From the NCBI GenBank assembly GCA_002720855.1, contig PBIN01000012.1:1-64000 (forward strand): a DNA stretch of 64,000 bases. The letters run 5' to 3'. A model generated the notes under the pieces. That model searched no databases, was not told the DNA's origin, and saw nothing but the letters and a program-made list of their open reading frames with translations. Position 1 is the stretch's first letter. The number at the start of each line of letters is the position of its first letter. Positions 1-21,460 of the stretch are shown here, piece after piece. The position numbers were made by a program, and so were the translations under genes. This DNA is from Rhodospirillaceae bacterium. GTDB lineage: Bacteria > Pseudomonadota > Alphaproteobacteria > MPNO01 > UBA2964.

Positions 1-384
1 GACAATCATGTTCGGTACGCCGTCAAACGAGGATTCCTTGCGACTACTCCCGCGGGACATTTTGAATTTGGTCAGATAGCGGCATGGGCGAACAGGAGAT
101 ACGGGACGGAAAACCCTGACATCAGCCGCATGCACCACGGTGAGACCGTAGAGGCTGGCGGAGTGGCAGCGGCGGGAGAAGTCGGTAGAGCGATAGGCTT
201 GGGTTCCCCTGAAGACTACAAACAGGAACTTGAAGCGTCCCGGCAGGAGAACGAGTGGCTGCGGGTGGCGCTGGCTGAATCGGAAGCACAAAGGGAACGC
301 GAAAAGCCTGACACCGACATAGGCAGAAAAGTGCGCGAAGGTGGGAGAAAAGGGGGTAACTCCCTGAAGGAAATGAGGCCATGA
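1..384 (+). CDS. Partial accessory protein, 5' end outside window
   Basis: The reading frame is open from base 1, so the visible 127 residues are the C-terminal part of a longer protein; the first internal ATG at 130 is probably not the start. The visible part begins with a stretch ending in FEFGQIAAWANRRYG, which looks like the end of a small helical DNA-binding-type domain, followed by a charged helix (about residues 70-105, rich in E, R and Q) that could form a coiled coil. The stop lies 115 bases before the AlpA-type gene. I do not recognise a family. Its position ahead of alpA and primase genes suggests an element-borne accessory or packaging gene (inference). Confidence 0.55.
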   Translation, partial: DNHVRYAVKRGFLATTPAGHFEFGQIAAWANRRYGTENPDISRMHHGETVEAGGVAAAGEVGRAIGLGSPEDYKQELEASRQENEWLRVALAESEAQREREKPDTDIGRKVREGGRKGGNSLKEMRP

Positions 385-499
385 CGCTGACAAACGGGCA
401 CAAAACCGGCGATACGCCTTAATTTTTTGAAACCTCCCGCTCCGACTTTCAGGCAGCAATCATGGAGGGCCATGTCCAACTAAACCCAAGGAACTTGGC

Positions 500-733
500 A
501 TGAGCCCAACCCAAAACACGTCACGCTTTCTGCGTCTTCAGCAAATCATCGGTAACAGCAACGCATCCCCCCCTCTGGACCCGATCATTCCGATCTCGGC
601 CTCATCTTGGTGGGCCGGTGTAGCGGCAGGCCGATTTCCGAAACCCGTAAAACTGGGGCCTAATACCACCGCCTGGCGGTGGGAAGATATTCAAGGCCTC
701 CTGGATCAGCTCGCGGCGGAGGTAGGCCAATGA
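500..733 (+). CDS. AlpA-type DNA-binding regulator
   Basis: A 77-residue protein with the layout of AlpA-family phage regulators: a short helix, then SSWWAGVAAGRFPKPVKLGPNTTAWRW, where the 'WW.G...GRFP.P.KLG...T.WR' pattern is the wing and recognition region of this MerR-like winged-helix fold, and a final helix with IQGLLDQL. Such proteins activate excision or replication genes of integrated elements. The ATG is preceded by AAGGAA at a suitable distance. The stop codon overlaps the start of the primase-helicase gene (ATGA), so the two are probably translated together. Family call is fairly safe; its target is inferred. Confidence 0.8.
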   Translation: MSPTQNTSRFLRLQQIIGNSNASPPLDPIIPISASSWWAGVAAGRFPKPVKLGPNTTAWRWEDIQGLLDQLAAEVGQ

Positions 734-2919
734 GCGGTCTCAGCGAACAACAGGACCAATTAGCGCAGTTTCAAGCCCTGTTCCCCTCATATTCACAGGC
801 GCATGGCATATTCGAAATCACGGGGGTTGATGCCCAGACCGGCAAGATACAAGGCAATGCCCGAACGATACGTCGCGGCGCGACCGTTCAGGCTTGGGAA
901 GAGCATTTGGCGGGCAGATCAACGGGGCTAGGTTCTATCCCGCTTCTTGATGACGGGGAGAGTGTTAAGTGGGCCGCGATAGATATTGATGTGAATGATA
1001 TTGATCACGCCTTCCTAGAAAAGAAGGTGGAAGATCTTGGCCTGCCCCTAATTGTTTGCAGAAGCAAGTCAGGCGGAGCGCACTGTTACCTCTTTCTGCA
1101 CAAGCGCTGTTTAGCAAAAGAAGTGGTTGATGCGCTTAGGAATTGGTCCGCAGCACTCGGTCACCCTGGGGTGGAGATTTTTCCGAAGCAAACGGAAAGA
1201 GAGCTTGATACGCAGGCTGGAAACCCCCGACCTGGGAACTGGATTAACCTTCCCTACTTCGAAGCCGATAGTACCGAGCGGTATTGCATCTATCGTGGGG
1301 GACGCTTGTCCCTATCAGAGTTCATTCAATTGGCCGAACGGAGTCGCGCCGATCATAGCGCGCTAAACATTAGGCACATAACCGCGATCTCCGAGGAGCC
1401 CGACCGGTCCCTCAAATCCCGCGAGGGGCGAAACGGCTTTCTTTTTTCCAAGGGCTGTGCCCTTCGGGCGGAAGGTGCAGATGGTGAGGCTATTCGCGCT
1501 GAGATCGAGGCTCTCAATCTCACAGCGACGGTTGAGGATCACCCAAACTTCGCTGATGGCCCCCTGCCTGCCAATGAATTGAGCCAGGTTGTTGCCTCGG
1601 TTTTAAAATTTGAAGCGACTGATCCCCGCAAAGAGGAACAAGAGCTGCTCACGCGGATGAATCAAAAGCACGCCGTGGTCATGGTCGGTGGCAAATGTGT
1701 GATCGCGAACGAAGAGTTTGACCCCAGTTGGGGGTACGACACGGTAACTTTTTCCTCGGAAGCAGATCTGATCCGCAGGTATGCCAATCGGCGGGTGGGT
1801 CACGGTAAGAGTCAAACCACTGAAGGTCGGGCTTGGCTAGCAAATCCGGGTCGGCGCCAATTTGACGGAGTTGTGTTTGCACCGGGCAAAGACACGCCGG
1901 GTTATCTCAATCTCGACAGGGGCTTCGCAGTAGAGCCGCGTCACGGGGATTGCTCTCTATTTCTTGATCACGTGCGAAATAACATATGTAGGTGTGATGA
2001 AGATCTGAGCGATTACCTTTTGGCTTGGATGGCAGACTGCGTACAAAACCGGTCCCGGCGGCCGGGAATATCAGTGGTATTGCGGGGGCGCCAGGGGACA
2101 GGGAAGGGTGTTCTCTGTAGTCAGTTCGGTGCCCTTTTTGGGCGACATTTCATTCAAGTTACTCAAGCCGGGCACCTGACCGGTAACTTCAACTCTCACC
2201 TCAAAGACAAACTATTGGTCCACGCCGACGAGGCTTTTTGGGCAGGCGATAAAAAGGCTGAGGGTGTTTTGAAGGCCCTAATCACCGAAGACACCATTCA
2301 AATAGAGATGAAAGGCCAGGACGTGGTGCCGTTCCGCAATCACATCCGATTGATTGTATCTTCCAACAACGAGTGGGTCGTGCCCGCGGGTAACGAGGAG
2401 CGGCGGTTTTTCATACTCGATGTCAGCGAGGCGCGGATGCAAGACAGAGCGTATTTCGGCAGCATTGTCGCTCAAATGAACAGCGGGGGGCGAGAAGCTC
2501 TTCTTCAGTATCTACTTGATTACGACCTCTCAGCTACGGATGTCGGCTCGCCACCAAAAACCAACGCACTCATGGACCAAAAGGCATACACCGCATCTCC
2601 GCTTCAATCTTGGTGGTATGAACGTTTGGTTGACGGTCACATAACCTCTGAGCGGACCAAATGGGATACAGAAATTCCGACAGATACGCTCCACGAGGAT
2701 TACATAACTTTCTGCCAAAACCAGGGGATCAAGCGCCCGAAGGCTCCGAGTGCGTTCGGTAAAGAGCTCAAAGCACTAGTCCCGGAGCTTGAAAGAGCTC
2801 GCCCATCTAATAAGAAAAGCCGCAAATATGTTTATAGGTTAGGCGAGTTGGACGTTTGTCGCCGCAATTTTGATCGCCTCACAATGTCTTCTCACCATTG
2901 GGACGAGGCGGATCACTGA
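730..2919 (+). CDS. Primase-polymerase / superfamily 3-type helicase
   Basis: A 729-residue replication protein of a mobile element. The N-terminal third looks like an archaeo-eukaryotic primase-polymerase domain: the DxD motif (AIDIDV, residues 84-88) and the SGGAH motif (114-118) would bind metal and nucleotide. The C-terminal half is a DUF5906/D5-like helicase: Walker A GTGKG near residue 458, Walker B LLVHADEAF near 500, and the sensor/arginine-finger stretch SSNNEWVVPAGNEERRF. The start at 730 overlaps the alpA stop by four bases and replaces an upstream alternative that would run through alpA. Proteins of this layout prime and unwind DNA for satellites, plasmids and phages. The exact family is inferred from motifs. 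Confidence 0.82.
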   Translation: MSGLSEQQDQLAQFQALFPSYSQAHGIFEITGVDAQTGKIQGNARTIRRGATVQAWEEHLAGRSTGLGSIPLLDDGESVKWAAIDIDVNDIDHAFLEKKVEDLGLPLIVCRSKSGGAHCYLFLHKRCLAKEVVDALRNWSAALGHPGVEIFPKQTERELDTQAGNPRPGNWINLPYFEADSTERYCIYRGGRLSLSEFIQLAERSRADHSALNIRHITAISEEPDRSLKSREGRNGFLFSKGCALRAEGADGEAIRAEIEALNLTATVEDHPNFADGPLPANELSQVVASVLKFEATDPRKEEQELLTRMNQKHAVVMVGGKCVIANEEFDPSWGYDTVTFSSEADLIRRYANRRVGHGKSQTTEGRAWLANPGRRQFDGVVFAPGKDTPGYLNLDRGFAVEPRHGDCSLFLDHVRNNICRCDEDLSDYLLAWMADCVQNRSRRPGISVVLRGRQGTGKGVLCSQFGALFGRHFIQVTQAGHLTGNFNSHLKDKLLVHADEAFWAGDKKAEGVLKALITEDTIQIEMKGQDVVPFRNHIRLIVSSNNEWVVPAGNEERRFFILDVSEARMQDRAYFGSIVAQMNSGGREALLQYLLDYDLSATDVGSPPKTNALMDQKAYTASPLQSWWYERLVDGHITSERTKWDTEIPTDTLHEDYITFCQNQGIKRPKAPSAFGKELKALVPELERARPSNKKSRKYVYRLGELDVCRRNFDRLTMSSHHWDEADH

Positions 2920-3390
2920 GTGCCCCCTGTTCTAGGACGCCGCACTTTGCTGGGGCTGAGGAAACCTTGGGTTTCTGGGGCGCGTCCTAGGTGTCCTAGC
3001 AGTCCTAGGAAAAAAGCCAATCACCCACCCCTGCTTTCCACCCACGCAGTAGTGCGTCGGCGTGAGAACCCAATATGGGGATTTGCTGGGACACCTAGGG
3101 CAGCTGGGACGCGATCCGAGGACCGTGTTCCGCGCTATATAGACCCCGCACCACGGATCACGCTCCTCGATCCGAGGCCGAAGGCACTAAGCCAACCTGA
3201 ATGATGTTCCGGGGCCCGTGTCCCGCCTACCGTGGCCCCCGCCCCAAGGCCAGTCTGCCTTGAACCACGGGCCGTGCACCACGGGTCATGGTTCTTGGCC
3301 CTCGATTCAGGGGGGCAGAGGACAAGCTAGCTAATTTCCTTGTTTGGTTATGCTTGGACCGGGACAGACAGCTTTGCACCAGGAAAAGTG
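2920..3390. other. Non-coding, repeat-bearing stretch after the primase gene
   Basis: This 471-base gap has no convincing gene: the one open frame that begins directly after the primase stop is rich in P and R and has no ribosome binding site. It is GC-rich and holds several short repeated words: GTCCTAG three times near 2984-3008, its inverse TCTAGGAC at 2931, two GCTGGGAC words around 3084-3108, and CCACGG words between 3160 and 3290. Its place directly downstream of a replication protein makes an origin or replication control region possible (inference). Confidence 0.5.
2984..3008. repeat. Three GTCCTAG direct repeats with 9-base spacing
   Basis: GTCCTAG occurs at 2984-2990, 2993-2999 and 3002-3008, so the period is exactly 9 bases. 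A near-inverse copy (TCTAGGAC) lies at 2931-2938. Short, regularly spaced direct repeats next to a primase-helicase gene resemble iterons, where an initiator protein binds. The three copies are seen directly; the function is inferred. Confidence 0.5.
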
Positions 3391-4062
3391 TCAGGGCTTA
3401 CGTTTCTTAATCTCCGTTAAGACCATCTCAAGGTCGTCCGGGTGAATGAACAGGTTCCTCCCCCCGCGCATTTCCTGCATCCATTTTCCTTTCTCCAAAT
3501 CTTTTAGGTCACGAACTTTGTGTTCGTCTCCGAATATATCTCTGATGTGGCGTTCATTATCGGTTCTTTGAATCGTGATAAGATTAATGTCCGGAGGTCC
3601 CGCTTCCTGGCCTAGGACGAATAACCATCGTTTATCGTTCGTTCCGGAAAATCCGATATGAGGGGACCCCAGCTCAGATTTGGCGCCTCTTGGTAAAAGG
3701 TATTCGTCTCTTGGGTGCCCACTACGCCACAGACGATCCAAACCGTATTTGACTGCCAACGTAACGACGTCTTTTACCGGGTCAGTTAACCGCCACCTCC
3801 GAGCAAAGTAGGCTCGTCCACCTTGTTCGACGAGCACGCCTACATGCCCCATGGAGGGGTCACTGTAGTTAGAAAGAATGAGATCCCCGTTGAATACGCC
3901 CGGTACCTGCCAACTATCGGATTTTCGGGCCTCACCGCTGCTTGCGGATTTTGAACCGCCGGGTCCCGACATCCCGCGCTGTTCTCTCAGATATTTTTGT
4001 AACCGGGCTAGCAATTCCGGTTCCATGTTCAGCAATTCGTCTTCAGAGATTGTGATTGCCAT
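3391..4062 (-). CDS. Unknown cytosolic protein, divergent from the UDG-like gene
   Basis: A 223-residue soluble protein I do not recognise. The first 30 residues form an acidic helix (ISEDELLNMEPELLARLQKYL), followed by a Gly/Ser-rich linker, then a mixed alpha/beta domain containing GDLILSNYSDP, GHVGVLVEQGG and a basic C-terminus ending KKRKP. There is no signal peptide or membrane segment. It is transcribed away from the gene at 4171 from a shared 108-base region that contains good sigma-70-like boxes on both strands. The divergent pairing with a possible DNA-repair-fold protein hints at a two-gene cargo module of the element, but no function can be assigned. Confidence 0.7.
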   Translation of the reverse strand: MAITISEDELLNMEPELLARLQKYLREQRGMSGPGGSKSASSGEARKSDSWQVPGVFNGDLILSNYSDPSMGHVGVLVEQGGRAYFARRWRLTDPVKDVVTLAVKYGLDRLWRSGHPRDEYLLPRGAKSELGSPHIGFSGTNDKRWLFVLGQEAGPPDINLITIQRTDNERHIRDIFGDEHKVRDLKDLEKGKWMQEMRGGRNLFIHPDDLEMVLTEIKKRKP

Positions 4063-4072
4063 AAATTTCCTC

Positions 4073-4146
4073 TTGACAAAATTTCCCGTCCTGTTAACAC
4101 TATGGGACCAAGATTTTAACGTACTATATTACATCACCTTTGTCAA
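4073..4146. promoter_or_regulatory. Facing sigma-70-like promoters between two divergent genes
   Basis: On the minus strand TTGACA (4146-4141), a 17-base spacer and TACGTT (4123-4118) form a good promoter for the gene ending at 3391. On the plus strand TTGACA (4073-4078) is followed after 16 bases by TAACAC (4095-4100), a plausible promoter for the gene at 4171. The two face each other and their transcripts would overlap, which could couple the two genes by interference. Boxes are seen; activity is inferred. Confidence 0.55.
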
Positions 4147-4170
4147 TACACCCCCAGATTGGAGGCGAAA

Positions 4171-5010
4171 ATGGTGAATTCTAACAAACACATTAGGCAC
4201 TGGGAAATATCGGGAACAAAATGTTCCCTGAATCAATATGATTTTATATGGGCGGACATACCAGCCGAACGCCTAAAAGCTGTCAGGTCCCTGGAGACAA
4301 TGGATATTCGCAATCTGCAGGACAGCTTAGCCCAGGAGTGCCCGATCAAAGCGTGGCCATACGGCATGCCTACCGTTGTGAATCCATACGTGGTCATTCT
4401 TGGAATGTCGCCAGGTGTGTCGCCCGCGTCGGGCGATAGTGACTATAACACGCGCCCGGCTTATGAGTTGCCTGCAGGAGGGGTGCCTCATCCGCGCTGG
4501 TATTATGCAGACTCCCGAGGGTATTGGGACAAGGTACGATATTTGTGCGGTCGTTTCCTCAAAGCCATTGACCCCAATTTTCGGGAAACGCAGGCTTTCT
4601 CCTTGTCGGGGCACATGAACCTGAGCACCGGTGCATCTGGCAGGGCCAGTGACGTTACTGTGCAGCGAGAGCTGGCCGATTGGGTTGTAAGGGCAATTTC
4701 CGGCGGCTTGAGGCCCCGATATGTAGTCGGTCTAGGGCTAACATCCGCTCTCAGAAAGTCCGATGTGCAAACAGCTTTATCAAATCTCGGGACGAGCCCG
4801 GTTGATTTTACCAAGCCGGACCGTGTGCGACCATTCCACGGTTATCAGAAAACAAGCCTCGCATACCGGGAGTGGGATTTTACGCGACCGGATGGTGGCA
4901 TGCTGACATTCGTGTCCTGGCCACAACATCCGGGCCGCGCCCCGTTTACGAACAGACAAATTTGGGAAGAAAGCGTGTCGGAGTACTGCCGCACCATATC
5001 GGCCAGCTAA
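4171..5010 (+). CDS. Uracil-DNA-glycosylase-fold-like protein
   Basis: A 279-residue soluble protein. Two short stretches match the two active-site loops of the uracil-DNA glycosylase superfamily: VVILGMSPG near residue 75 (like the GxNPG loop that binds the base) and SWPQHPGRAP near residue 250 (like the HPS loop). The spacing and the aromatic residues after the first loop (RWYYADSRGYW) also fit. The ATG at 4171 is chosen because GGAGG lies just upstream; the TTG at 4159 has none. It could be an enzyme acting on modified DNA of invading phages or on nucleotides. The fold call is tentative and rests on the two motifs only. Confidence 0.6.
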   Translation: MVNSNKHIRHWEISGTKCSLNQYDFIWADIPAERLKAVRSLETMDIRNLQDSLAQECPIKAWPYGMPTVVNPYVVILGMSPGVSPASGDSDYNTRPAYELPAGGVPHPRWYYADSRGYWDKVRYLCGRFLKAIDPNFRETQAFSLSGHMNLSTGASGRASDVTVQRELADWVVRAISGGLRPRYVVGLGLTSALRKSDVQTALSNLGTSPVDFTKPDRVRPFHGYQKTSLAYREWDFTRPDGGMLTFVSWPQHPGRAPFTNRQIWEESVSEYCRTISAS

Positions 5011-5076
5011 GTCGGAACCAACAGAATGCCAGGGGGCATTGGTTCTAATGAAACGTTTATCCAGGAGAATAAAATT

Positions 5077-5421
5077 ATGAAGATAGTACGCAGTCAACAG
5101 GACTTTGATCTCCTAAAGCCCAAATTTCCTCGGCCTAACGACTACAGAAATTTTACTCAAGCCGGCTATTATTTTGACCCCAATGGGGTGTTAGAAAAAG
5201 GAACGCTGTCAATTCAGGATGCTTTGCCTAAGGCAAAACCGTCCGGGCCCCGCTGGAGAACTTTTGAAGCAATGGAAAGCGGCATCACGGTTGAGGGTTT
5301 TAACCAGAAAGCCAAGGAAATGAGACTAGGGGCCGAATGGGATGCCGATATTTTTATAGCGGTCCACAGAGGATTTAGACGACTTATTGCCCAAGGTCAG
5401 GGAACTGGGATGGGCAAATAA
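5077..5421 (+). CDS. Small protein of unknown function
   Basis: A 114-residue soluble protein starting at an ATG with CAGGAG upstream, 66 bases after the UDG-like gene and on the same strand, so the two may be co-transcribed. It contains an N-terminal phrase (NFTQAGYYFDPNGVLEKGTLSIQDALPK) and a helix-rich C-terminus with WDADIFIAVHRGFRRLIAQGQG. There is no signal peptide and no motif I can place. It is more likely real than not because of the ribosome binding site and balanced composition. Confidence 0.6.
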   Translation: MKIVRSQQDFDLLKPKFPRPNDYRNFTQAGYYFDPNGVLEKGTLSIQDALPKAKPSGPRWRTFEAMESGITVEGFNQKAKEMRLGAEWDADIFIAVHRGFRRLIAQGQGTGMGK

Positions 5422-5506
5422 GCGAAGCGATGTTCGTCAGGAAAATAGCCTATCCCGCTTTAATTCATAGGTAATTATGAGTTGAGCCCTGACCTATGCT
5501 GCATGG

Positions 5507-5609
5507 AGCCCTGGACCATCGTCCGTGCTTTGTGCGCGCTGCCACGGACCGCGTCTTACCCTTGCGCGGTCCGTGGACTGGCGCTCTTGCTCCCGACGCA
5601 TCCACGCTG
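5507..5609 (-). pseudogene. Decayed copy of the HGGxSTG-family gene
   Basis: On the minus strand about 100 bases align closely with the middle of the intact gene at 6042-6365. The intact HGGKSTGPRTAEGKARVAAAHTKHG is represented by pieces in two frames: SPRTAQG followed by a stop in one frame, and RSVAARTKHGRWSRA in the next. One frameshift and several substitutions break it, and neither end of the family is present. It lies about 600 bases from the intact copy, with the MORN gene in between, so it is probably the relic of a duplication. Confidence 0.65.
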
Positions 5610-5714
5610 TTTCGGCAAAGTTTATGTGCTCTCCGTATAACCCCTCTGGATCTTAAACATGGATATTTTGGCCGGTATTTTCGTGATCGCAATGATCTAT
5701 TGGATGTGGTCCCA

Positions 5715-6356
5715 GTGATCGCAAAATTTAAAGTTTGGCCCATACTCGCGGCGCTTTTTGTTCTGATGCATATATCAGAAGCACATAGCTCCGGTATCCA
5801 GCGTTGTCCCGGAGCGTATGGTGGGACTGTGTGGCATGACTGCATTGGGATTTACACTTTTCTCAATGGGACGCAGTACATGGGAAAATTCAGAAATAAT
5901 AAATTCCACGGGTGGGGCTTGTTAGTCTCGCCACATAGAGGAACATGCGTGGGGTTCTCCAATAAAGGAAAAATAGTAGCCAAAAAGTGCCTTCCTAAAC
6001 CCCATGCAGGATCACCGAGCAGTCCGCGCATACAGGAACGTCTACGGAATAAACCCATCCCGCTTAAGCTCATAAGTTATCCGCCTGATCTCAGCGTTGA
6101 TATACCGAACCTTCTCAACATGTGCCTTGGACCGTCGTCCGTGTTTCGTGTGCGCTGCTGCGACCCGCGCTTTGCCCTCCGCGGTCCGTGGGCCGGTGGA
6201 CTTGCCCCCATGCATCCGGCACCTGTTGCGTCCGGTGACGACGGGGTTCTGACAAGGAGTGCCTTTGCGGGTTTTCGCATGGCACCGTTGGCCCGGCCAA
6301 CTGGCCCCGAGCCGCGTGCCACAGCCCGCGTCGATGAGTTTTTTACGGTTAACTAA
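5715..6356 (+). CDS. Secreted MORN-motif protein, C-terminus doubtful
   Basis: From a GTG at 5715 the frame begins MIAKFKVWPILAALFVLMHISEAHS, a good signal peptide. The mature part has Cys-containing segments and one clear MORN-type motif (GTQYMGKFRNNKFHGWGLL), a beta-hairpin repeat known for lipid or protein contacts. After about residue 110 the frame runs antisense to the HGGxSTG gene on the other strand and looks low in meaning (many P, R and A), so the last 100 residues may be read-through caused by loss of the true end. The GTG overlaps the stop of a tiny upstream frame (GTGA). The MORN part is probably real; the extent is uncertain. Confidence 0.45.
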   Translation: MIAKFKVWPILAALFVLMHISEAHSSGIQRCPGAYGGTVWHDCIGIYTFLNGTQYMGKFRNNKFHGWGLLVSPHRGTCVGFSNKGKIVAKKCLPKPHAGSPSSPRIQERLRNKPIPLKLISYPPDLSVDIPNLLNMCLGPSSVFRVRCCDPRFALRGPWAGGLAPMHPAPVASGDDGVLTRSAFAGFRMAPLARPTGPEPRATARVDEFFTVN

Positions 6357-6365
6357 GGTTAACAT
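6042..6365 (-). CDS. HGGxSTG-domain protein
   Basis: A 107-residue basic protein with the pattern of a small family common in alphaproteobacteria and their phages: two short Cys-containing stretches (RCHAKTRKGTPCQNPV and NRCRMHGG) that could hold zinc, the core HGGKSTGPRT, then a helix AEGKARVAAAHTKHGRRSK and a charged tail. Function of the family is unknown; nucleic-acid binding is a fair guess from its charge. The gene overlaps the 3' half of the MORN frame on the opposite strand. The conserved motif makes this strand the reliable one. A broken second copy lies at 5507-5609. Confidence 0.75.
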   Translation of the reverse strand: MLTLVNRKKLIDAGCGTRLGASWPGQRCHAKTRKGTPCQNPVVTGRNRCRMHGGKSTGPRTAEGKARVAAAHTKHGRRSKAHVEKVRYINAEIRRITYELKRDGFIP

Positions 6366-6543
6366 CCTCAGGCCCCCTGCATGAGGTTGGGCGTCAGAAC
6401 ATTATACCGCGGATCGTTTGAGGGGGGTAACTTGGTTCAGGGTTTGAGGTGCGCCTCTCAGGCACGATCTTCTCTTGCATTCAGGTAGGCTAGCCTCAGT
6501 GCGCCGCTGACTGAATATGATTTGCTCGAATAACGCCCATCGG

Positions 6544-8523
6544 TCAGCCCTGCAATACGGGAATGCCACACATTTGTAGGTAGCCAAAAGTTTCGTCGTA
6601 GTATTTTGAAAGGCGAGTATGGTCTTTATCGTTTCCCTGAGGGATATAAATAACCACACCCTGCCGGGCACGGGTCATCAGAACGCGATAAGCATTCTTC
6701 AGATAAAGCTTTGCCTGATCTTTGCGTACGCTTTGCCAACGCGTTCCTTTAAAACGATAATACTCAAACTGACCGTTGGAATATCTCAGGTCAGCATCCC
6801 AGCAAACGCCGATCCAATCTAATTCGAGCCCCTGTACGTCGAATTCAGTAGCGACTTCTTCCATGTAAAACGAAGATCGAATATCTAGCTTATCGTTTAG
6901 GAACCAAATCGGGGCGTCGATTTTGGCTTTCACATTCAAACCATCGGGACGCAAACGATAAGCACCTGAAGAGGCGACCAAACCGTATCGCTCACTGCCA
7001 CGTGCATGATCTCGAAGCCATTGTCGCGACGAGGGTAAGGATCGGGTGAGGGCGATTGGATAATTCTCTCGGATTTGTTCGAGTGTCGCTCGTGCCTGAT
7101 CAGGACGATTCTCGACTACGTGCCCAACAAAAGCAGAGAGGGATTCCGCTCGAAAAGAACGAACTGATACCTTCAGATGCAGACTTTCGTCTTGTTTCAT
7201 TCTTATTCGCGCGAAATTTGATTTAGCTTCGTCGTCCCAGATGTAGTCAGGGTCGTCTAAACGGTTTGATCCGTAAATTCGCCAGTTCGGAAAACTCTCT
7301 GCGAGGGCACGCAGCCATTCCGACAGCCCCGCTTCACCAGTATTAATTTCTTGTCCGCCGCCGATCAGACAGACAATGACAGACCAGTCGTCATGCCGGT
7401 CCATTACACTAATTAAAAACTCAGGCTCCGACGTATTGAATTCAGTAAACCCGCGTTTCTGCATGAACTTGGTAGCCTGCTCATTATCCCATGCGCGTTG
7501 GGCTTCATCGAAGATAACTACTCTCTCAACAGGGGGCTTCTCTCTGCCAATCTCCGTGTTCCGAAAATGGTGTATATTTTGGACGAAAGCCTGAACTGCC
7601 TGATGTGCACTTTTTTTAGATACGTTCTCTCGCTGCGCCTTGTCCCGTGCGAGGGCTTCTCGCAAGACGTCAACCAACGGACCATTACCTGATAAAAATG
7701 TGGCGTGTTCATCCGCGTGGGCATCGGCACGCTCTGTTGCAATATTCAAACCCGCGAGGGTTTTGCCGGCCCCAGGCACACCGGTGATGAAGCAGATTGC
7801 CTTGAAGCTTTGCGCTTTAGCGTCGTCGATGACTTCGTCTATAGCTTTGTTTGTTTCGAAAAGGTTTTGGGCGCCCGCATCGGAACGAGTAATTTCCCCG
7901 ACCGAGTGCTGTCGGTAAAGCGCCTGCGCTGCTTCGACAATCGTAGGGGTGGGTTTGTACCCAGATTCCGCCCATGCAGATGCGGTGAGTGCCAATGGTT
8001 TCGGTGCGTACGGGATATTTTGATTGTTCCTTAAAAGCCCAGCCAGTTCCGCGGAAGAGGACACTCGCAATGGCGACGAGACCTTATCCGCGGCGAACTC
8101 GGCGACTTGCTTATCTTGTTGTGGGGCTGATGTAGCAATCAATACTGGGATGATTGGAAGCAAATGACTTCCATGATGGAAGTTCTTTAAATCGAGAGCG
8201 TAATCGTGAGCCTGATCTCTTGCCGCGGTATCAAATACTTCGGAGTGGACCTTAAACTCCAGCACGACAATGGTATTTTCTATGAGCAATACAACATCTG
8301 CCCGTTTACCCATGCGGGGAATAAAAAACTCGAAGTAAATGTGGGCTGGTCTTTGCAGTCCTGCCAACGCGGACTTTAAAAAGACGATTTGTTCGTGCCA
8401 GGCACCCAATTGGGCAGCATCAACACCGGTGCCAGCAGTGGTTAATTCTCCGACAATGGAAGTCGTAGGAGAAGATAAAAATTCTCCCAACGGACGATCG
8501 AAATAGCCGACGAGAGGCATCAA
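6544..8523 (-). CDS. DUF2075 helicase with PD-(D/E)xK-like N-terminus
   Basis: A 659-residue protein. Residues 60-95 show RADVVLL then VVLEFK (D76, E89, K91), the spacing of a PD-(D/E)xK nuclease core. A DUF2075 P-loop NTPase follows: Walker A GVPGAGKT (248-255), Walker B VVIFDEAQ (335-342), and a C-terminal helicase part with VQGLELDWIGVCWD and NAYRVLMTRARQG, motifs shared with UvrD-like and Schlafen-like helicases. Such fusions are frequent in defence islands and on mobile elements, where they act on nucleic acids. It lies alone near the right edge of the element. Family call is firm; the nuclease reading and a defence role are inferred. Confidence 0.85.
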   Translation of the reverse strand: MMPLVGYFDRPLGEFLSSPTTSIVGELTTAGTGVDAAQLGAWHEQIVFLKSALAGLQRPAHIYFEFFIPRMGKRADVVLLIENTIVVLEFKVHSEVFDTAARDQAHDYALDLKNFHHGSHLLPIIPVLIATSAPQQDKQVAEFAADKVSSPLRVSSSAELAGLLRNNQNIPYAPKPLALTASAWAESGYKPTPTIVEAAQALYRQHSVGEITRSDAGAQNLFETNKAIDEVIDDAKAQSFKAICFITGVPGAGKTLAGLNIATERADAHADEHATFLSGNGPLVDVLREALARDKAQRENVSKKSAHQAVQAFVQNIHHFRNTEIGREKPPVERVVIFDEAQRAWDNEQATKFMQKRGFTEFNTSEPEFLISVMDRHDDWSVIVCLIGGGQEINTGEAGLSEWLRALAESFPNWRIYGSNRLDDPDYIWDDEAKSNFARIRMKQDESLHLKVSVRSFRAESLSAFVGHVVENRPDQARATLEQIRENYPIALTRSLPSSRQWLRDHARGSERYGLVASSGAYRLRPDGLNVKAKIDAPIWFLNDKLDIRSSFYMEEVATEFDVQGLELDWIGVCWDADLRYSNGQFEYYRFKGTRWQSVRKDQAKLYLKNAYRVLMTRARQGVVIYIPQGNDKDHTRLSKYYDETFGYLQMCGIPVLQG

Positions 8524-9318
8524 CCTATAAAACTCGGGCTATATGCTCGGGGAGTAACTCTCGGCGGTAGTGAACGGAAACTCTGCAACATTGAACGTAA
8601 CCTCCAGCAGTTCGTACACGCTTCTTTGATTTTGACTGAATGGATTGAAGCCCCCCCCTAAAGCTTGAGACATTGTGGGTCCTACCCCCCCACGAGTGAA
8701 ATACGCGAACCTCGGGTCAGCGATCCGGCACCATACTCCGCCTTACTAATAATTTCGACCATACTTAGAGGTCTGGCGCGGTGGTTCTTTGTCAAGCACC
8801 CGGCCCAAGCCCCCAGCCCCAGAACCCCGGTCCGTGATCAGAGGCTGATCGCTTTATTTGCGATGTAATCAATTACCGAGAGTCTGGACGGGCCCCTAGG
8901 CGGTGGTCCGTGATCGGTGATGCGCTAGGCCAAGCATCGTATGCACGGGACCATGCCTTTCAGCGCCGTTCCCGGCGATGGCGAGACCACTTGTAAACGC
9001 CCGATTGGGGTTAGCACTTCGACATTATTTGGCTTAAGTCAAAAGGGACCCGACCCTGAGGCTAACGACAAATTAATGTGGGACGGAATGTGGGATGGAA
9101 ATCCGGTATTTAGAAATAAATGATATATTTCAACGAGTTATATGTAATAAAGGCGGACTCCCTCTCCGCCACGAATTCAATCGCGCAATAGCGGATGACC
9201 AGAAGTCGCCTTGCTTACGCCATAAAGTCAGGAAATAAGTCTCTAGCGATAGCAGCCACTTTTTGACGAGTTAGCTTTGTTCAGCGCGGCCTCACTTCTT
9301 TTTCGATCAATCTATCGG
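8524..9318. other. Non-coding right end of the element
   Basis: Almost 800 bases without a supportable gene. It contains the upstream region of the DUF2075 gene, C-runs at 8650 and 8684, an 11-base direct repeat GGTCCGTGATC (8829-8839 and 8905-8915), and near 9077-9100 a repeated TGTGGGAC/TGTGGGAT word of a type often seen beside attachment sites. The short frame at 8941-9123 has no ribosome binding site and looks spurious. The putative attachment site follows at 9158. The last 140 bases are probably the promoter region of the transglycosylase gene. Confidence 0.5.
9158..9171. other. Putative attachment site, tRNA-Ser 3'-end match
   Basis: CTCCCTCTCCGCCA matches the 3' acceptor and T-stem end of typical alphaproteobacterial tRNA-Ser genes, but no tRNA body precedes it. 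A free 3' tRNA end is what remains at the far side (attR) of an element integrated in a tRNA gene. Left of it lie only accessory genes, right of it chromosomal genes begin. The full tRNA and integrase would be left of this window. The match is seen; the attachment role is inferred. Confidence 0.45.
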
Positions 9319-10155
9319 ATGTGTTGCACGACAATTGAATATGCCCTCGTAAGACAGCATACGCCTGTTGCACGTTTCTTAACGCTCCTTGCCTTGGGGT
9401 TGACGCTGTCAGTGCCTGCACAAGCGTATCTTGATGCTACCGCTGCCTATCGCATGGCTCTGCGTTATCATCATCCCCTGGGACAAAACGCGCGGAACTA
9501 TCAGCGGGCTATGCTGCTTTACTGTAGGGCCGATACCGATGGTCATGGCGCTTCGGCACATGCAATTGGCCTTTTATACGCAGCTGGACACGGGGTTAAA
9601 CGCAACAACAAAATGGCGGCCGCATGGTTTAGAAGGGCTATTGCCCTCGGGCATAAGGAATCGAAACGGATGCTGTTGCTCTACGGCCATCGCGGCAGAC
9701 GATTGGCGCCCCGTTGCCCGAACGGCTGGGGCCGTGGCGGAGGACGGCAAGCAATAAAACGAGCGCCAAAAGAGATCAAAGCGATTGTTCGCGAATTTGC
9801 TCCTAAATACCGGCTGGACCCGGATTTGGTTATGGCGGTAATCGCAGTTGAATCAGCCTTCCAGCCCAACGCAATATCCAGCGCCAATGCGCAGGGCCTC
9901 ATGCAGCTGATTCCCGCAACAGCCAGTCGATTTGGTGTCCGTGATCCATTTAACCCAAGAGACAACATCAAAGGGGGAATGGCCTATTTGCGATGGTTGC
10001 TGGATCGCTTTAAAGGGAACGTAACCTGGGCGTTCGCGGCCTATAACGCGGGCGAAGGAGCTGTTCAGCGATATAAGGGCATTCCCCCCTATAAAGAAAC
10101 GCAGAACTATGTTCGGAAATTACGGCGTCTATATAAAAAGCGGCAGCATCCCTAG
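9319..10155 (+). CDS. Lytic transglycosylase with Sel1-like repeat
   Basis: About 278 residues. An N-terminal signal peptide (RFLTLLALGLTLSVPAQA) sends it to the periplasm. A Sel1-like helical repeat follows (AHAIGLLYAAGHGVKRNNKMAAAWFRRAIALG), then a family 1 SLT domain: catalytic glutamate in AVESAFQPNA, the QGLMQLIPATA motif and AYNAGEGAV. It would cleave peptidoglycan between MurNAc and GlcNAc. I chose the ATG at 9319; an upstream TTG at 9277 is possible. It is the first chromosomal gene right of the putative attachment site and stands alone. Confidence 0.85.
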   Translation: MCCTTIEYALVRQHTPVARFLTLLALGLTLSVPAQAYLDATAAYRMALRYHHPLGQNARNYQRAMLLYCRADTDGHGASAHAIGLLYAAGHGVKRNNKMAAAWFRRAIALGHKESKRMLLLYGHRGRRLAPRCPNGWGRGGGRQAIKRAPKEIKAIVREFAPKYRLDPDLVMAVIAVESAFQPNAISSANAQGLMQLIPATASRFGVRDPFNPRDNIKGGMAYLRWLLDRFKGNVTWAFAAYNAGEGAVQRYKGIPPYKETQNYVRKLRRLYKKRQHP

Positions 10156-10230
10156 CCAAATCCGTTGGACAAAACCCGTTATCAAGAGCAGACTTTGAGG
10201 TAGCCAACTAGAGTTCGGGGGGAAAATCCA

Positions 10231-10872
10231 ATGGACTCAATAAATCCCACCGATTTTCGACCAGATAAAGTAGCTCCGATCCGTACTGACCCGCCGGGAA
10301 CCGTCACGGAAATGCCGTCTCCGACAAAGTTGCATCATCTGCACATCTTTTCAGATGAGAATTACGACGACATGGTCGAGTTTTATCAACGTCTGTTTAA
10401 TGCGGAAATTGTACGAGTTAACCCAAATGGCCTGACTTTTATTACCTATGATGATCATGACCATCGCGTGGTTATCATTAAACGCCCTGGTGCCCAAAAG
10501 AAGCCCGACAACTTTATTGGGGTGTCGCATCAGGCATACTGTTATTCAAGCCTTGGTGAACTGATTTTCGTATACAAGCGAATGAAGGAATGGGGCTACG
10601 ATCCCGTTTGGACAGTTAATCACGGAAATTCCACATCATTCTATTATCGCGATCCTGATGGCAATCAGGTCGAGACAATGTTGGATAATTTCACGCCGGC
10701 CGAAACCAAAGAATATAAACGCCACTATCAGTGGTCAGAGGAATTCTCCGCAATGGGAGATCCAACCTTTGATGCCGACAAGATGGTCGAACTATACGAA
10801 TCTGGAGTACCGGATTCCATTCTGCTGGACCATACAGAGGTCTGCAAAATGATCCAAACGGGCAAACTCTAA
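10231..10872 (+). CDS. VOC-family protein, extradiol dioxygenase-like
   Basis: 213 residues in the vicinal-oxygen-chelate fold. The three likely metal ligands are visible: His in LHHLHIFS (about residue 35), His in GVSHQAYCY (about 103) and Glu in DGNQVETML (about 150), together with the FYYRDPDGN signature of type I extradiol dioxygenases and glyoxalases. It probably acts on a dihydroxylated aromatic compound or its product, in line with the catabolic genes downstream, but isomerase or resistance functions are possible. ATG follows GGGGGGAAAA. The end overlaps the stop of gluQ on the other strand by four bases. Confidence 0.75.
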   Translation: MDSINPTDFRPDKVAPIRTDPPGTVTEMPSPTKLHHLHIFSDENYDDMVEFYQRLFNAEIVRVNPNGLTFITYDDHDHRVVIIKRPGAQKKPDNFIGVSHQAYCYSSLGELIFVYKRMKEWGYDPVWTVNHGNSTSFYYRDPDGNQVETMLDNFTPAETKEYKRHYQWSEEFSAMGDPTFDADKMVELYESGVPDSILLDHTEVCKMIQTGKL

Positions 10873-11714
10873 TCTAATCCTACCATTCGGCGGATATCTT
10901 CTGGTGAATGCCCATTCTTCCGTAGTGCTCTCAACGTGATCGAGTGATCACGCTTTGCAAAGCGTTTGCCTGTATTATCGGTGAGAATTCTATGGTGATG
11001 ATATGTGGGCATTTCGTATCCGAGTACCGACTGCAGCACCCGATGGATATTGGTGGAATCCGCCAGGTCTTTTCCGCGAGTGATTAAAGTAACTCCTTGC
11101 AACCCGTCGTCGACCGTAACCGCGAGATGATAACTTGTTCGAATATCTTTTCTCGCGAGGACAACGTCGCCAAATGCTGATAGCTCGACAGCGTGTTGAC
11201 CGCTTTGTTGATCGAACCAATTTAACGTACCGGTGAGGTCTGTTGCTTTGGCTGAGTCTATCCTGAGCGCGAATGGTTCCCCTTCCAGAGTTTTCTTCTC
11301 GCGCTCTGAGGTGGAAAGGTGTCTGCAGGTGCCGGGATAAACTGGGCCCTCTGGACCGTGTGGCGCCCCCCCTGCCCGTTCAATTTCAGCTTTGATGTCA
11401 CCACGGGTGCAAAAGCAAGGGTAAATCAGCTCTAATTCGGTTAATTTATCTAGTGCTTTGTCATAATCGTCCAGATGCGCCGACTGCCGCCTCACAGGTT
11501 CTTCCCACTCAATTCCGAGCCAGCTGAGATCTTCCAGAATGGCGTCTTCGAATTCCGGTTTGCAGCGGGTTCGGTCAATATCTTCAATGCGAAGTATAAA
11601 CCGGCCCTCGGTTATCTTCGCTTTGTGGTACGCAAATAGCGCCGAAAAGGCGTGGCCGATATGCAGATATCCAGTTGGACTTGGCGCGAACCGCGTAACG
11701 ACGCCAGAGGTCAT
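10869..11714 (-). CDS. gluQ: Glutamyl-Q tRNA(Asp) synthetase
   Basis: 281 residues, the length of GluQ-RS, a glutamyl-tRNA synthetase paralogue without the anticodon-binding domain. It attaches glutamate to the queuosine base of tRNA(Asp). Visible are the HIGH-type motif in PSPTGYLHIGHAFSA, the zinc-binding region (YPCFCTRGD ... YPGTCRH) and the KMSKS counterpart KRFAKRDHS. It overlaps the start of... its upstream partner, the DUF952 gene, by four bases (ATGA), so the two form an operon. Confidence 0.93.
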   Translation of the reverse strand: MTSGVVTRFAPSPTGYLHIGHAFSALFAYHKAKITEGRFILRIEDIDRTRCKPEFEDAILEDLSWLGIEWEEPVRRQSAHLDDYDKALDKLTELELIYPCFCTRGDIKAEIERAGGAPHGPEGPVYPGTCRHLSTSEREKKTLEGEPFALRIDSAKATDLTGTLNWFDQQSGQHAVELSAFGDVVLARKDIRTSYHLAVTVDDGLQGVTLITRGKDLADSTNIHRVLQSVLGYEMPTYHHHRILTDNTGKRFAKRDHSITLRALRKNGHSPEDIRRMVGLD

Positions 11715-12064
11715 GTTTCAGTAATATGCGCAGGAAAGATATGTTCGCCGTCTTCACCAAGCGGAAGCGCATCGAAACGTTGAACCGCTTCTACAGGAAG
11801 ATTTCCGTATAGGTGAGGAAACAAGGCGCCGCCGCGAGATTCCTCCCATTTAAGAGATTCACCTAGTTGGGTTGGATCGACCGTCAAAAGAATTAGTCCG
11901 GTTTGTCCAGCACGATGCTTTTTTGCACTTTCGACGATTTGAGGGCGTGTGGAGAAATGAATAAACCCGTCTGCTCGGTCTTGCGACGAACCAGTGTACT
12001 CCCCGGTTTTCTGTGCAGTTTCCCATTCTTCGGCGCGGCACATGTGATAAATAGGTTCTGCCAT
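11711..12064 (-). CDS. DUF952 family protein
   Basis: About 117 residues of the DUF952 family, which begins IYHMCRAEEW and has the central DGFIHFSTRPQI motif; both are present, as is the closing HLYGNLPVEAV. The family is soluble and of unknown function; a relation to ADP-ribosyl-transferase-like folds has been proposed for it, which I cannot test here. The ATG at 12064 fits the usual N-terminus better than a GTG twelve bases upstream. It is the first gene of a two-gene operon with gluQ. Confidence 0.85.
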   Translation of the reverse strand: MAEPIYHMCRAEEWETAQKTGEYTGSSQDRADGFIHFSTRPQIVESAKKHRAGQTGLILLTVDPTQLGESLKWEESRGGALFPHLYGNLPVEAVQRFDALPLGEDGEHIFPAHITET

Positions 12065-12187
12065 GTCAGTACTCACGATTTCAACTCAGCCCTTAGATAA
12101 CATATATTCGGCTGCGTTCTAAAACTTGGACAAATATCACCGTTTCCGCTTCAATGTTACGACAATTAAAAACTCAAGAATCTTGTA

Positions 12188-12531
12188 ATGCCGCCAAAAA
12201 ACAACCCGCTCAAACTAAATTCACTGCAATTAAAGACACTGACAATTCTACAGCAATTGGGTCGTTTTCCTGAAACCTCAAGCAAGAACGAGGAAACAGG
12301 CGAGGTTATGATCAGTAATCTGCCTAACCCGCACGGTAATCATTTTCATTGCGGCGATGCGGTTGTGATGGCCAAGAATGCAACCGGATTAAAAAACCAG
12401 GGAGTCTGGAAGGCCTGGAACGCAAAGGCCTGGCACGCTCGTTTTTTCCCATGGGAATCGCCCTGACTTCCGATGGTATGGAATATGATACAGGCCTTTC
12501 AGAAACGATCCTGATGAAATCTGATCATTGA
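12188..12531 (+). pseudogene. Hypothetical protein gene with a one-base frameshift
   Basis: Frame 1 encodes NPLKLNSLQLKTLTILQQLGR and HGNHFHCGDAVVMAKNATGLKNQGVWKA, then turns into WNAKAWHARFF and stops at 12466. The +1-shifted frame continues sensibly from the same point: LERKGLARSFFPMGIALTSDG and on to a stop at 12531. Restoring one C in the AAGGCCTGG near 12413-12416 gives a continuous protein of about 114 residues, similar in my memory to a conserved Rhodospirillales protein. It is either a recent null mutation or a sequencing error. No function is known. Confidence 0.65.
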
Positions 12532-12719
12532 GGGCGGGCTTTTGCTATTTCCGCCACTCGACTAATTGGCGGAGCAGCGATGTATCGGGATCGAACGAGT
12601 CTCCCACCAAGAGGTTTTGATAAACGGCGTAGAAAGCCTTGGACACAACCTCCTTGACTCTGGCTTGCGCCCGCCGCACGCTTTGGCTCACCTGATAATA
12701 ATTTTGGATGGAGGGGACG

Positions 12720-20150: not shown

Positions 20151-21460
20151 TAGGCGGCCTCACACATGTAGTAGAGCCAAGCCTGATATTGCGCACGAAT
20201 AGCCATTTCATGCATGGCGGACTCACTCGTGGCGTTGTAATGCGAATCGGCTTGCTCTTCGCCCATGCCTCTAGAGAGATCGATCCAGTCTGATTGTACG
20301 CTTTGCAATCCTACCTGCGTCCGCCGGAAAGCTTCTAAATCGTCCGTTTGCACAAAAGAGGCCGCTGAATGGGTTACGTTGAGCAACCGAATATTTGCTG
20401 CGTTCATTTCGTCCGGCGCGCCGACAAGTTTCACAGGGTATACGGTGACTTCGGTAAGATCGGTTGTTACCGGGCGAATGACGCGCACATGCATATTCAA
20501 ACCCATAATCGAGCAGTTCGGATACAGCAGGGAATTATGAAATTCAGGTGCCAGAATTTCTTCCATACGTTCATGGCCGACCTTTGCTGCAAGCGCTTCT
20601 TTGTAGGCGTCGTATGCGGGGCTGGAACGTTCTCCCTCTTTGAGTTCTGTATTGCTTGTCCAACCATGGCCAAAGTCGACGACGTAGGAACGGCGTCCCT
20701 TCCAGACATCCGAAGTGCTTTCTTTCTTACCCTTCTTTTCGTCGATTACCTGGGCACCCTCTTTATCCCCTTCCCGCCGTGAGAACTGTTCGCCTTTTTT
20801 ATTAACGGTCGAAGCATGAGAAAACGGCACGTGGTAGGAATCCAATACGTTTTCGACCTGCAGTTTCCAATTGCCACGGAAAAAATAACGATGAATTCCA
20901 GCATCAAGTGATATTGCGCCCTCAGGTGCGCGATCGACGAGATCGTCTATGTTGGCTTTCATTGGACCAAGAAACTCGTCGAAGCTCGCGCCTTTTTCCG
21001 CAAAACTAACGAAAATGAAGCCGCGATATTCGCCCATGCGGGCTGCCTTCGCGAGGCCAAAATCTTTTTTGTCGAAATGTGGCGCCGATCCTTCAGGCAT
21101 TGCGACATCGATCAGGCTACCGTCTGTATCGTAAGACCAGCCATGATAGAGGCAGGTCAGTGCTCGCGCGTTACCGCAAGGGTCGTTGCATAACTTGGGA
21201 CCACGATGGGCGCAGCGGTTAAGTAAGACCTGCGGTGAGCCGTCCTTGTGTCGAATAAAGATAATGGGCTGGCGGCCGATATCGGTGGTTATATAATCCC
21301 CAATGTTAGGAATCTGGCTTGTATGGCCGGCAAACATCCAGGCGCGATTGAATATTCGCTCCATTTCTAGTTCGAATATATCTTCATCTGTATAGACCCG
21401 CCGATGAACGCGACCGGGCTCTATCAGTTTCGAAATTTCGTCAGGCGTACCGTCAAACAT
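20150..21460 (-). CDS. Rieske ring-hydroxylating oxygenase, large subunit
   Basis: 436 residues. The Rieske [2Fe-2S] cluster ligands are Cys83, His85, Cys103 and His106 (CAHRG ... CLYHGW). The mononuclear iron site lies in ENVLDSYHVPFSH with Asp207 as the electron bridge and His210 and His215 as ligands. The closest known group is the benzoate/anthranilate/salicylate type of aromatic-acid oxygenase (judged from length and motif spacing). It would add O2 to an aromatic acid. No ferredoxin or reductase gene is next to it, so electrons must come from elsewhere. Transcribed away from the MFS gene at 21621. Confidence 0.93.
   Translation of the reverse strand: MFDGTPDEISKLIEPGRVHRRVYTDEDIFELEMERIFNRAWMFAGHTSQIPNIGDYITTDIGRQPIIFIRHKDGSPQVLLNRCAHRGPKLCNDPCGNARALTCLYHGWSYDTDGSLIDVAMPEGSAPHFDKKDFGLAKAARMGEYRGFIFVSFAEKGASFDEFLGPMKANIDDLVDRAPEGAISLDAGIHRYFFRGNWKLQVENVLDSYHVPFSHASTVNKKGEQFSRREGDKEGAQVIDEKKGKKESTSDVWKGRRSYVVDFGHGWTSNTELKEGERSSPAYDAYKEALAAKVGHERMEEILAPEFHNSLLYPNCSIMGLNMHVRVIRPVTTDLTEVTVYPVKLVGAPDEMNAANIRLLNVTHSAASFVQTDDLEAFRRTQVGLQSVQSDWIDLSRGMGEEQADSHYNATSESAMHEMAIRAQYQAWLYYMCEAA

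What the first reader, a model, noticed from the sequence alone, without database searches (positions are those of the whole stretch)
1..9175. Right part of an integrated element ending at a tRNA-Ser 3' end
Everything left of 9158 is accessory: AlpA-type regulator coupled to a primase-helicase, orphan genes, DUF2075. Right of it, chromosomal genes start. CTCCCTCTCCGCCA at 9158-9171 equals the 3' end of a typical tRNA-Ser but no tRNA body is there, as at an attR site. I see no capsid or tail gene, so a satellite or plasmid-like element is more likely than a full prophage.
Basis: partly seen in the sequence, partly recalled or inferred. Interest (0 to 1): 0.7.

Follow-up and report, generated by a model that had tools for sequence, protein, structure and literature searches.

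The report
Phage-satellite-like element inserted at tRNA-Ser
The first 9.2 kb of the window is one end of a small mobile DNA element that inserted itself into the end of a serine tRNA gene of a marine bacterium; two close relatives still have the empty site, and related elements elsewhere suggest it behaves like a parasite of viruses that carries an anti-virus gene.

Summary
The window starts at base 1 of a contig (G000:C12). Two congeners, one a closed genome, carry the empty site: tRNA-Ser(UGA) directly followed by the window's flank genes, on the other side the genes of contig C13. In G000 that tRNA-Ser sits at the end of C13, facing the gap, so the element lies between C13 and C12. The right boundary is a 19-bp tyrosine-recombinase core, GGCGGA-CTCCCTC-TCCGCC (9152-9170). 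It recurs (20 of 21 bases) at the far end of a sister element at tRNA-Ser(CGA) in a congener, and beside homologous integrases in viral contigs. The sister has an intact integrase beside its tRNA and the same genes in the same order; the cargo next to attR differs (DUF2075/PDC-S41 here, Mrr nuclease there). The G000 integrase is not in the assembly. Layout int-(overlap gene)-alpA-primase, no structural genes, and an 8.2-kb circular relative with the same core plus a small-terminase gene make a phage-satellite-like life most likely, unproven. It resembles PICMI but lacks its hallmark (fis site). A HGGxSTG protein, found at the small-terminase position in some phages, may redirect packaging (inference).

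The parts
1..384 (+). 5'-truncated ORF (contig start) between the missing integrase and alpA; same position as the integrase-overlapping gene of the sister element and of PICMIs
   Evidence: no family hit; position compared with L099
500..733 (+). AlpA/HTH-type small regulator
   Evidence: PF05930 E 4.5e-4; 34% over 47 aa to the L100 gene in front of its primase
730..2919 (+). PrimPol (AEP primase, PriCT_1) fused to SF3/DUF5906 helicase
   Evidence: 69% identity to L093, 63% over the first 295 residues to L099
3391..4062 (-). orphan gene A, conserved in sister element, same position and strand
   Evidence: 54-56% identity to L099:14077-14736, dN/dS 0.19
4219..5010 (+). orphan gene B, highly conserved in sister element (homology starts near 4240; ORF opens at 4159)
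   Evidence: 77% identity, dN/dS 0.09 over 230 codons; no family found
5026..5421 (+). orphan gene C; fused to gene B in the sister
   Evidence: 37% identity to the C-terminal part of L099:14900-16102
5652..6020 (+). short MORN-like protein
   Evidence: 58% identity to L099:16215-16604; weak MORN hit
6042..6365 (-). HGGxSTG-domain protein (Cys/His motif), core gene of the related elements; candidate small-terminase-like protein
   Evidence: NF041373 E 3.8e-18; 81/64/47/53% to homologues in L099, L100, L095, L063; phage homologues at small-terminase position
6544..8523 (-). DUF2075/SLFN-g3 helicase with an N-terminal PD-(D/E)xK-like motif; candidate anti-phage gene PDC-S41 (cargo)
   Evidence: PF09848 E 6.5e-84, PDLC05014 E 2e-277; sister has an Mrr nuclease in this slot
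8829..8915 (+). two 11-bp direct repeats GGTCCGTGATC (8829-8839, 8905-8915), possible integrase arm sites (weak)
   Evidence: segment shared with G003 and G004
9152..9171 (+). attR: core GGCGGA (element) - CTCCCTC (7-bp overlap) - TCCGCC(A) (native tRNA-Ser 3' end)
9172..10155 (+). chromosomal flank starting with the SLT transglycosylase gene (9277-10155), next to tRNA-Ser(UGA) in G002 and G007

Best explanation
Window 1-9157 is the right part of an integrated mobile element. A tyrosine integrase of the Arm-DNA-bind_3/Phage_int_M kind, encoded at the left end and lost in the assembly gap, recombined the element's attP core GGCGGA-CTCCCTC-TCCGCC with the 3' end of tRNA-Ser(UGA). This left a tRNA-Ser at the left (contig C13) and the displaced native tRNA 3' end at 9158-9171 (attR). 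The excised circle is probably primed and unwound by the PrimPol-SF3 helicase under AlpA control. The element then most likely moves as a phage satellite: no structural genes, a HGGxSTG protein that may act like a small terminase, and a swappable anti-phage gene next to attR. Shown: integration, boundary, empty site, orthologous sister element, cargo difference. Inferred: excision, replication, packaging by a helper phage, and the roles of HGGxSTG and PDC-S41. Confidence is about 0.95 for the integrated element and about 0.55 for satellite life.
For: Empty site in G002 and G007 with synteny on both sides. tRNA-Ser(UGA) at the end of C13 facing the gap. attR core shared 20/21 with the sister L099 at another tRNA-Ser. 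The core occurs in 4 of 385 class genomes against 0 for the reversed pattern. In G219 it lies 21.8 kb from tRNA-Ser(GGA) with a 56%-identical integrase adjacent. In three IMG/VR contigs it lies about 150-340 bp from a homologous integrase. Sister gene order and purifying selection. Cargo swap PDC-S41 / Mrr. L186, an 8.2-kb circular contig with the same core, same integrase clade, D5/DUF5906 primase and a small terminase but no capsid gene recognised. Int-alpA-prim layout as in PICMI (PMC10803314).
Against: No integrase for this element in the assembly; the C13-C12 join is inferred from synteny, not sequenced. No helper phage, cos/pac site or packaging data. AlpA is just under the Pfam cut-off. 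The HGGxSTG link to small terminases rests on weak scores (phrog_9231 E 0.0086) and gene position in phages. In the phage contigs the core has the opposite orientation relative to int compared with the sister.
Confidence: 0.75

Rival explanations
1. The same integrated element, but not phage-packaged: an integrative plasmid-like replicon (or a remnant of one) that replicates with its PrimPol-helicase and spreads by transformation, vesicles or generalized transduction.
For: PrimPol-helicase relatives occur on small non-mobilizable plasmids; no recognisable capsid-hijacking or large-terminase gene; a SAR116 locus holds PrimPol plus HGGxSTG with no integrase seen nearby.
Against: The same att core and integrase clade occur in IMG/VR contigs, one of them a circular satellite-sized element with a small terminase; HGGxSTG is kept in the related elements.
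Confidence: 0.3
2. Degenerate prophage remnant that lost its structural genes and kept replication and cargo genes.
For: The primase-helicase is related to phage primases; decayed HGGxSTG-like fragment at 5465-5845.
Against: The sister carries the same gene set in the same order with no structural genes, and genes are under purifying selection: the reduced set is ancestral, not a private decay.
Confidence: 0.12
3. The 9158 motif is a chance look-alike or a terminator hairpin, and the region is ordinary variable chromosome.
For: GGCGGA/TCCGCC is a perfect 6-bp hairpin; short match.
Against: Empty sites and synteny, the near-identical core in the sister, proximity of the core to homologous integrases, and no T-run after the hairpin.
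Confidence: 0.02

Closest known systems
PICMI (phage-inducible chromosomal minimalist islands, Vibrionaceae; PMC10803314)
   Same: int, gene overlapping/adjacent to int, alpA, DUF5906-type primase in one order; no capsid-remodelling or structural genes; variable defence cargo between prim and the far att
   Different: inserts at tRNA-Ser not fis; at least 9.2 kb here and 12.6 kb in the sister (Vibrionaceae PICMI-like elements average 6.7 kb); PrimPol N-terminal domain; carries HGGxSTG; host is an alphaproteobacterium, and the paper reports no complete PICMI outside Vibrio
P4-like satellites (PMC8628076, PMC9122126)
   Same: integrase at a tRNA gene, AlpA-type regulator, P4-family primase-helicase C-terminus (TIGR01613, below cut-off), defence genes in a small swap site
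   Different: no psu, sid or delta homologue recognised; defence cargo sits next to attR, not between psu and int; AEP primase domain
PICI / satellites with their own small terminase
   Same: the core-sharing circular element L186 has integrase, primase and a TerS (Sf6_terminase) without recognised structural genes
   Different: the window element has no Pfam-recognised TerS, only HGGxSTG
Tycheposons and VEIMEs (named in PMC10803314; further details from own knowledge)
   Same: marine transduced chromosomal islands with integrase, replication genes and cargo
   Different: no sequence comparison was made here
NrS-1 phage primase-polymerase (PDB 6k9c/6lrb; identity of these entries from own knowledge)
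   Same: SF3-type helicase part aligns (E 3e-13)
   Different: a single protein of a phage, not an element

Membership tests
tRNA-targeted integrative element (tyrosine integrase) | empty site in relatives | tested here: met
   G002 and G007
tRNA-targeted integrative element (tyrosine integrase) | tRNA at one end, displaced 3' fragment at the other | tested here: met
   C13:304-393 and window 9158-9171
tRNA-targeted integrative element (tyrosine integrase) | integrase gene in the element | tested here: inconclusive
   absent from the assembly, contig gap; present in the sister
PICMI | int + alpA + DUF5906-type primase co-localised | tested here: inconclusive
   alpA and primase present; int in the gap; all three in relative L093
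PICMI | insertion downstream of fis (hallmark per PMC10803314) | tested here: not met
   site is tRNA-Ser(UGA)
PICMI | small size (about 6.7 kb average) | tested here: not met
   at least 9.16 kb; sister 12.6 kb
PICMI | induced by and packaged with a helper phage | not testable with these tools
   needs culture and phage
P4-like satellite | psu / sid / delta capsid-hijack genes | tested here: not met
   no such family among the element's proteins
P4-like satellite | P4-family primase-helicase | tested here: inconclusive
   TIGR01613 54.5 bits, cut-off 108.7
Phage satellite (general) | no structural genes but integration, regulation and replication genes | tested here: met
Phage satellite (general) | helper phage and packaging signal | not testable with these tools
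   no culture, no helper known
Anti-phage candidate PDC-S41 | full-length match to the PADLOC model | tested here: met
   E 2e-277, residues 7-657; defence activity not tested

The most novel reading that the evidence does not exclude
A distinct family of phage satellites of marine Alphaproteobacteria, recognisable by the 19-bp att core GGCGGA-CTCNCTC-TCCGCC at tRNA-Ser genes, that redirects helper packaging with a HGGxSTG small-terminase-like protein, swaps its helicase domain behind a constant PrimPol domain, and swaps defence cargo beside attR.
Probability: 0.3. Interest if true: 0.65.

Novelty: new variant of a known kind. Interest (0 to 1): 0.45.

Why it matters
It gives a precisely bounded satellite-like element in a bacterial group where complete PICMI were not found, with an empty site, a sister element and a searchable att core. 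The constant HGGxSTG gene gives a testable idea for how such elements get packaged, and the cargo slot next to attR is a place to look for new anti-phage genes in ocean bacteria.

Tried and rejected
C12's left end has no overlapping contig end among the contig termini compared, so the gap could not be closed. The integrase at C8:3284-4291 was considered as ours and rejected: it belongs to another element at tRNA-Pro whose intact tRNA is at the end of C3. The one-mismatch motif at C8:2875 lies inside an ORF and was dropped. Orphan genes A and B gave no relatives in IMG/VR and no Pfam hit; AlphaFold models from two-sequence alignments were unusable (pLDDT 42-43), so no fold search was run. The sister's right flank was not found in other congeners, so its right end rests on the att repeat. 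No paper on HGGxSTG proteins was found. A TerS structural relative of HGGxSTG was not found in the PDB.

Full report
WHERE THE WINDOW LIES. The window is bases 1-64000 of contig C12 of a 15-contig, 98% complete genome (G000, 3.58 Mb). Named loci that carry relatives of its genes are MAGs labelled Rhodospirillaceae, Rhodospirillales and SAR116.

THE BOUNDARY. CTCCCTCTCCGCCA at 9158-9171 is unique in the genome, and the window has no tRNA near it. In two congeners, G002 (one closed contig) and G007, DNA homologous to window 9352/9401 and onward lies immediately after a tRNA-Ser(UGA); on the other side of that tRNA lie genes homologous to G000 contig C13. In G000, C13 begins with the same tRNA-Ser(UGA) at 304-393, its 3' end facing the contig end. 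The site is therefore empty in G002 and G007 and occupied in G000, between C13:304 and C12:9171. The G002 tRNA ends in exactly CTCCCTCTCCGCCA. An alignment of the flank places the shared stretch GCCTTGCT..CGCCATAAAG a few tens of bases after the tRNA end in both.

THE CORE. The closest relative of the element, L099 (G008, MAG SP3103), ends with AGGCGGACTCTCTCTCCGCCA at 20415-20435; the window has AGGCGGACTCCCTCTCCGCCA at 9151-9171: 20 of 21 bases identical, including seven bases on the element side. The structure is an inverted repeat GGCGGA / TCCGCC around a 7-bp spacer, which is what a tyrosine-recombinase core with a 7-bp overlap looks like (established knowledge of lambda/P4-type integrases). 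Among 385 genomes of the class the 20-mer occurs in 4, its reversed control in none. In one of these, G219, it lies 21.8 kb from an intact tRNA-Ser(GGA) that faces it and is followed directly by an integrase 56% identical to that of L099. In IMG/VR five contigs carry the 19-mer; three of them encode an integrase 47-53% identical to L099's, with its start facing the core at about 150-340 bp, as at an attP site. In these contigs the core is inverted relative to the integrase compared with L099; because the core is palindromic I do not regard this as a contradiction, but it is unexplained.

THE ELEMENT'S GENES. 1-384: truncated ORF; 500-733: AlpA-like; 730-2919: PrimPol-helicase overlapping alpA by ATGA (PriCT_1, DUF5906, Pox_D5); 3391-6365: orphan genes and a HGGxSTG protein; 6544-8523: DUF2075 / SLFN-g3 helicase, PADLOC candidate defence gene PDC-S41 over its full length. 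Its N-terminal stretch RADVVLLIENTIVVLEFKV reads like a PD-(D/E)xK nuclease motif (direct reading, not tested). G+C is 52.4% against 48.9% in the flank, above every 9-kb block of the flank.

THE SISTER. L099 shows what is missing: tRNA-Ser(CGA) 7747-7836, integrase 7950-9194 (Arm-DNA-bind_3, Phage_int_M, Phage_integrase), an ORF overlapping it, PrimPol 9962-12697, two further genes, then orthologues of the window's genes 3391-6365 in the same order and strands, then an Mrr-type nuclease in the slot of PDC-S41, then attR. Orthologue dN/dS is 0.09-0.30, so these genes are maintained. The first 295 residues of the primase are 60-63% identical, but the helicase part is of a different family (DUF5906 in the window, L093 and SAR116; DUF927-like in L099 and L100): a domain swap behind a constant primase. 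L093 is a minimal version, int-alpA-PrimPol, followed by chromosomal-looking genes.

MISSING INTEGRASE. PF00589 finds three genes in G000 and PF13356 none. The one on C8 belongs to a different element at tRNA-Pro whose two ends lie on C3 and C8. The other two (340 and 337 aa, on the large contigs C14 and C15) were not typed; I take them for XerC/XerD-like. The element's own integrase is most simply in the gap between C13 and C12; loss cannot be excluded.

HOW IT WORKS. Shown: site-specific insertion at the tRNA 3' end. Inferred from families: integrase plus AlpA (excisionase-like in PICMI, PMC10803314) excise it, and PrimPol-helicase replicates the circle. For spread, a satellite life is favoured: (i) the int-overlapping gene-alpA-DUF5906 primase layout is that of PICMI, a proven phage satellite; (ii) no structural gene; (iii) L186, an IMG/VR contig with a 127-bp terminal repeat (circular, 8.2 kb), carries the same att core, an integrase of the same clade, a D5/DUF5906 primase and an Sf6-type small terminase, and no capsid gene was recognised; (iv) HGGxSTG is kept in the window, L099, L100, SAR116 and G003 copies, and its phage relatives sit directly before the large terminase in Pasteurella phage Pm86 and are annotated small terminase in Bacillus phages; (v) a swappable defence slot beside attR, as in PICMI and P4 satellites (PMC10803314, PMC9122126). 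Points iii-v are circumstantial. Without a helper phage or particle data the plasmid-like reading stays open.

TANDEM INSERTION. C13:1-56 carries a second tRNA-Ser 3' half, from the anticodon loop to ..GGTTCGAATCC, about 240 bp beyond the tRNA-Ser(UGA) and stopping exactly where the att overlap would begin. It is 82-84% identical to the neighbouring tRNA and to those of G002 and G007 alike, so its origin is not settled. The simplest reading is two successive insertions at this tRNA, the left one now a short remnant. The full tRNA-Ser(UGA) of G000 has an A-C mismatch in its acceptor stem (3' strand TCCCTCC), whereas the displaced end at 9158-9171 pairs perfectly; this fits an element-supplied 3' end in the tRNA.

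MEMBERSHIP. It is an integrative element by tested criteria. It is not filed as PICMI (fis site and size not met) or P4 (capsid-hijack genes not found). That it works like a satellite is a claim of about 0.55.

Noticed in passing
G000:C13:1-393 (L041): Second tRNA-Ser 3' half 240 bp behind tRNA-Ser(UGA), and an A-C mismatch in the acceptor stem of that tRNA: signs of two successive insertions at one tRNA gene.
   Followed up: partly
window 730-2919 versus L099:9962-12697 and L100:2219-4954: Primase domain conserved (about 60%) while the helicase domain behind residue 295 is replaced by a different helicase family.
   Followed up: partly
L095:9642-12315 (and four similar SAR116 contigs, L094, L096-L098): PrimPol and HGGxSTG genes side by side between chromosomal genes in L095 with no integrase nearby: minimal relics or a different way of moving; the other contigs were not annotated gene by gene.
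   Followed up: no
G000:C3:131639-135230 and C8:1-4402 (L074, L007): A second, unrelated element at tRNA-Pro(CGG), split by an assembly gap: a 74-bp 97% tRNA repeat marks its ends; 335-aa integrase and a 419-aa protein without Pfam hit.
   Followed up: partly
window 8798-8904; L063:4726-4800; L064:2171-2224: Short non-coding segment 86-91% conserved in two congeners, in G003 between a HGGxSTG remnant and tRNA-Lys; contains the direct repeat GGTCCGTGATC.
   Followed up: partly
window 5465-5845 (-) and L099:16103-16324 (-): Decayed second HGGxSTG-like fragment near the intact gene, in the same place in both elements.
   Followed up: no
G219:C111:15918-37877 (L196, L197): 21.8-kb stretch between tRNA-Ser(GGA) with integrase and an attR core, containing genes that look like a formate dehydrogenase operon (by reading only): large cargo, or an element plus a displaced att.
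   Followed up: partly
L186 (IMGVR_UViG_3300037520_001878): Circular 8.2-kb contig with integrase, D5 primase, Sf6-type small terminase and a collagen/CBM protein sharing the att core: a likely satellite in its own right.
   Followed up: partly
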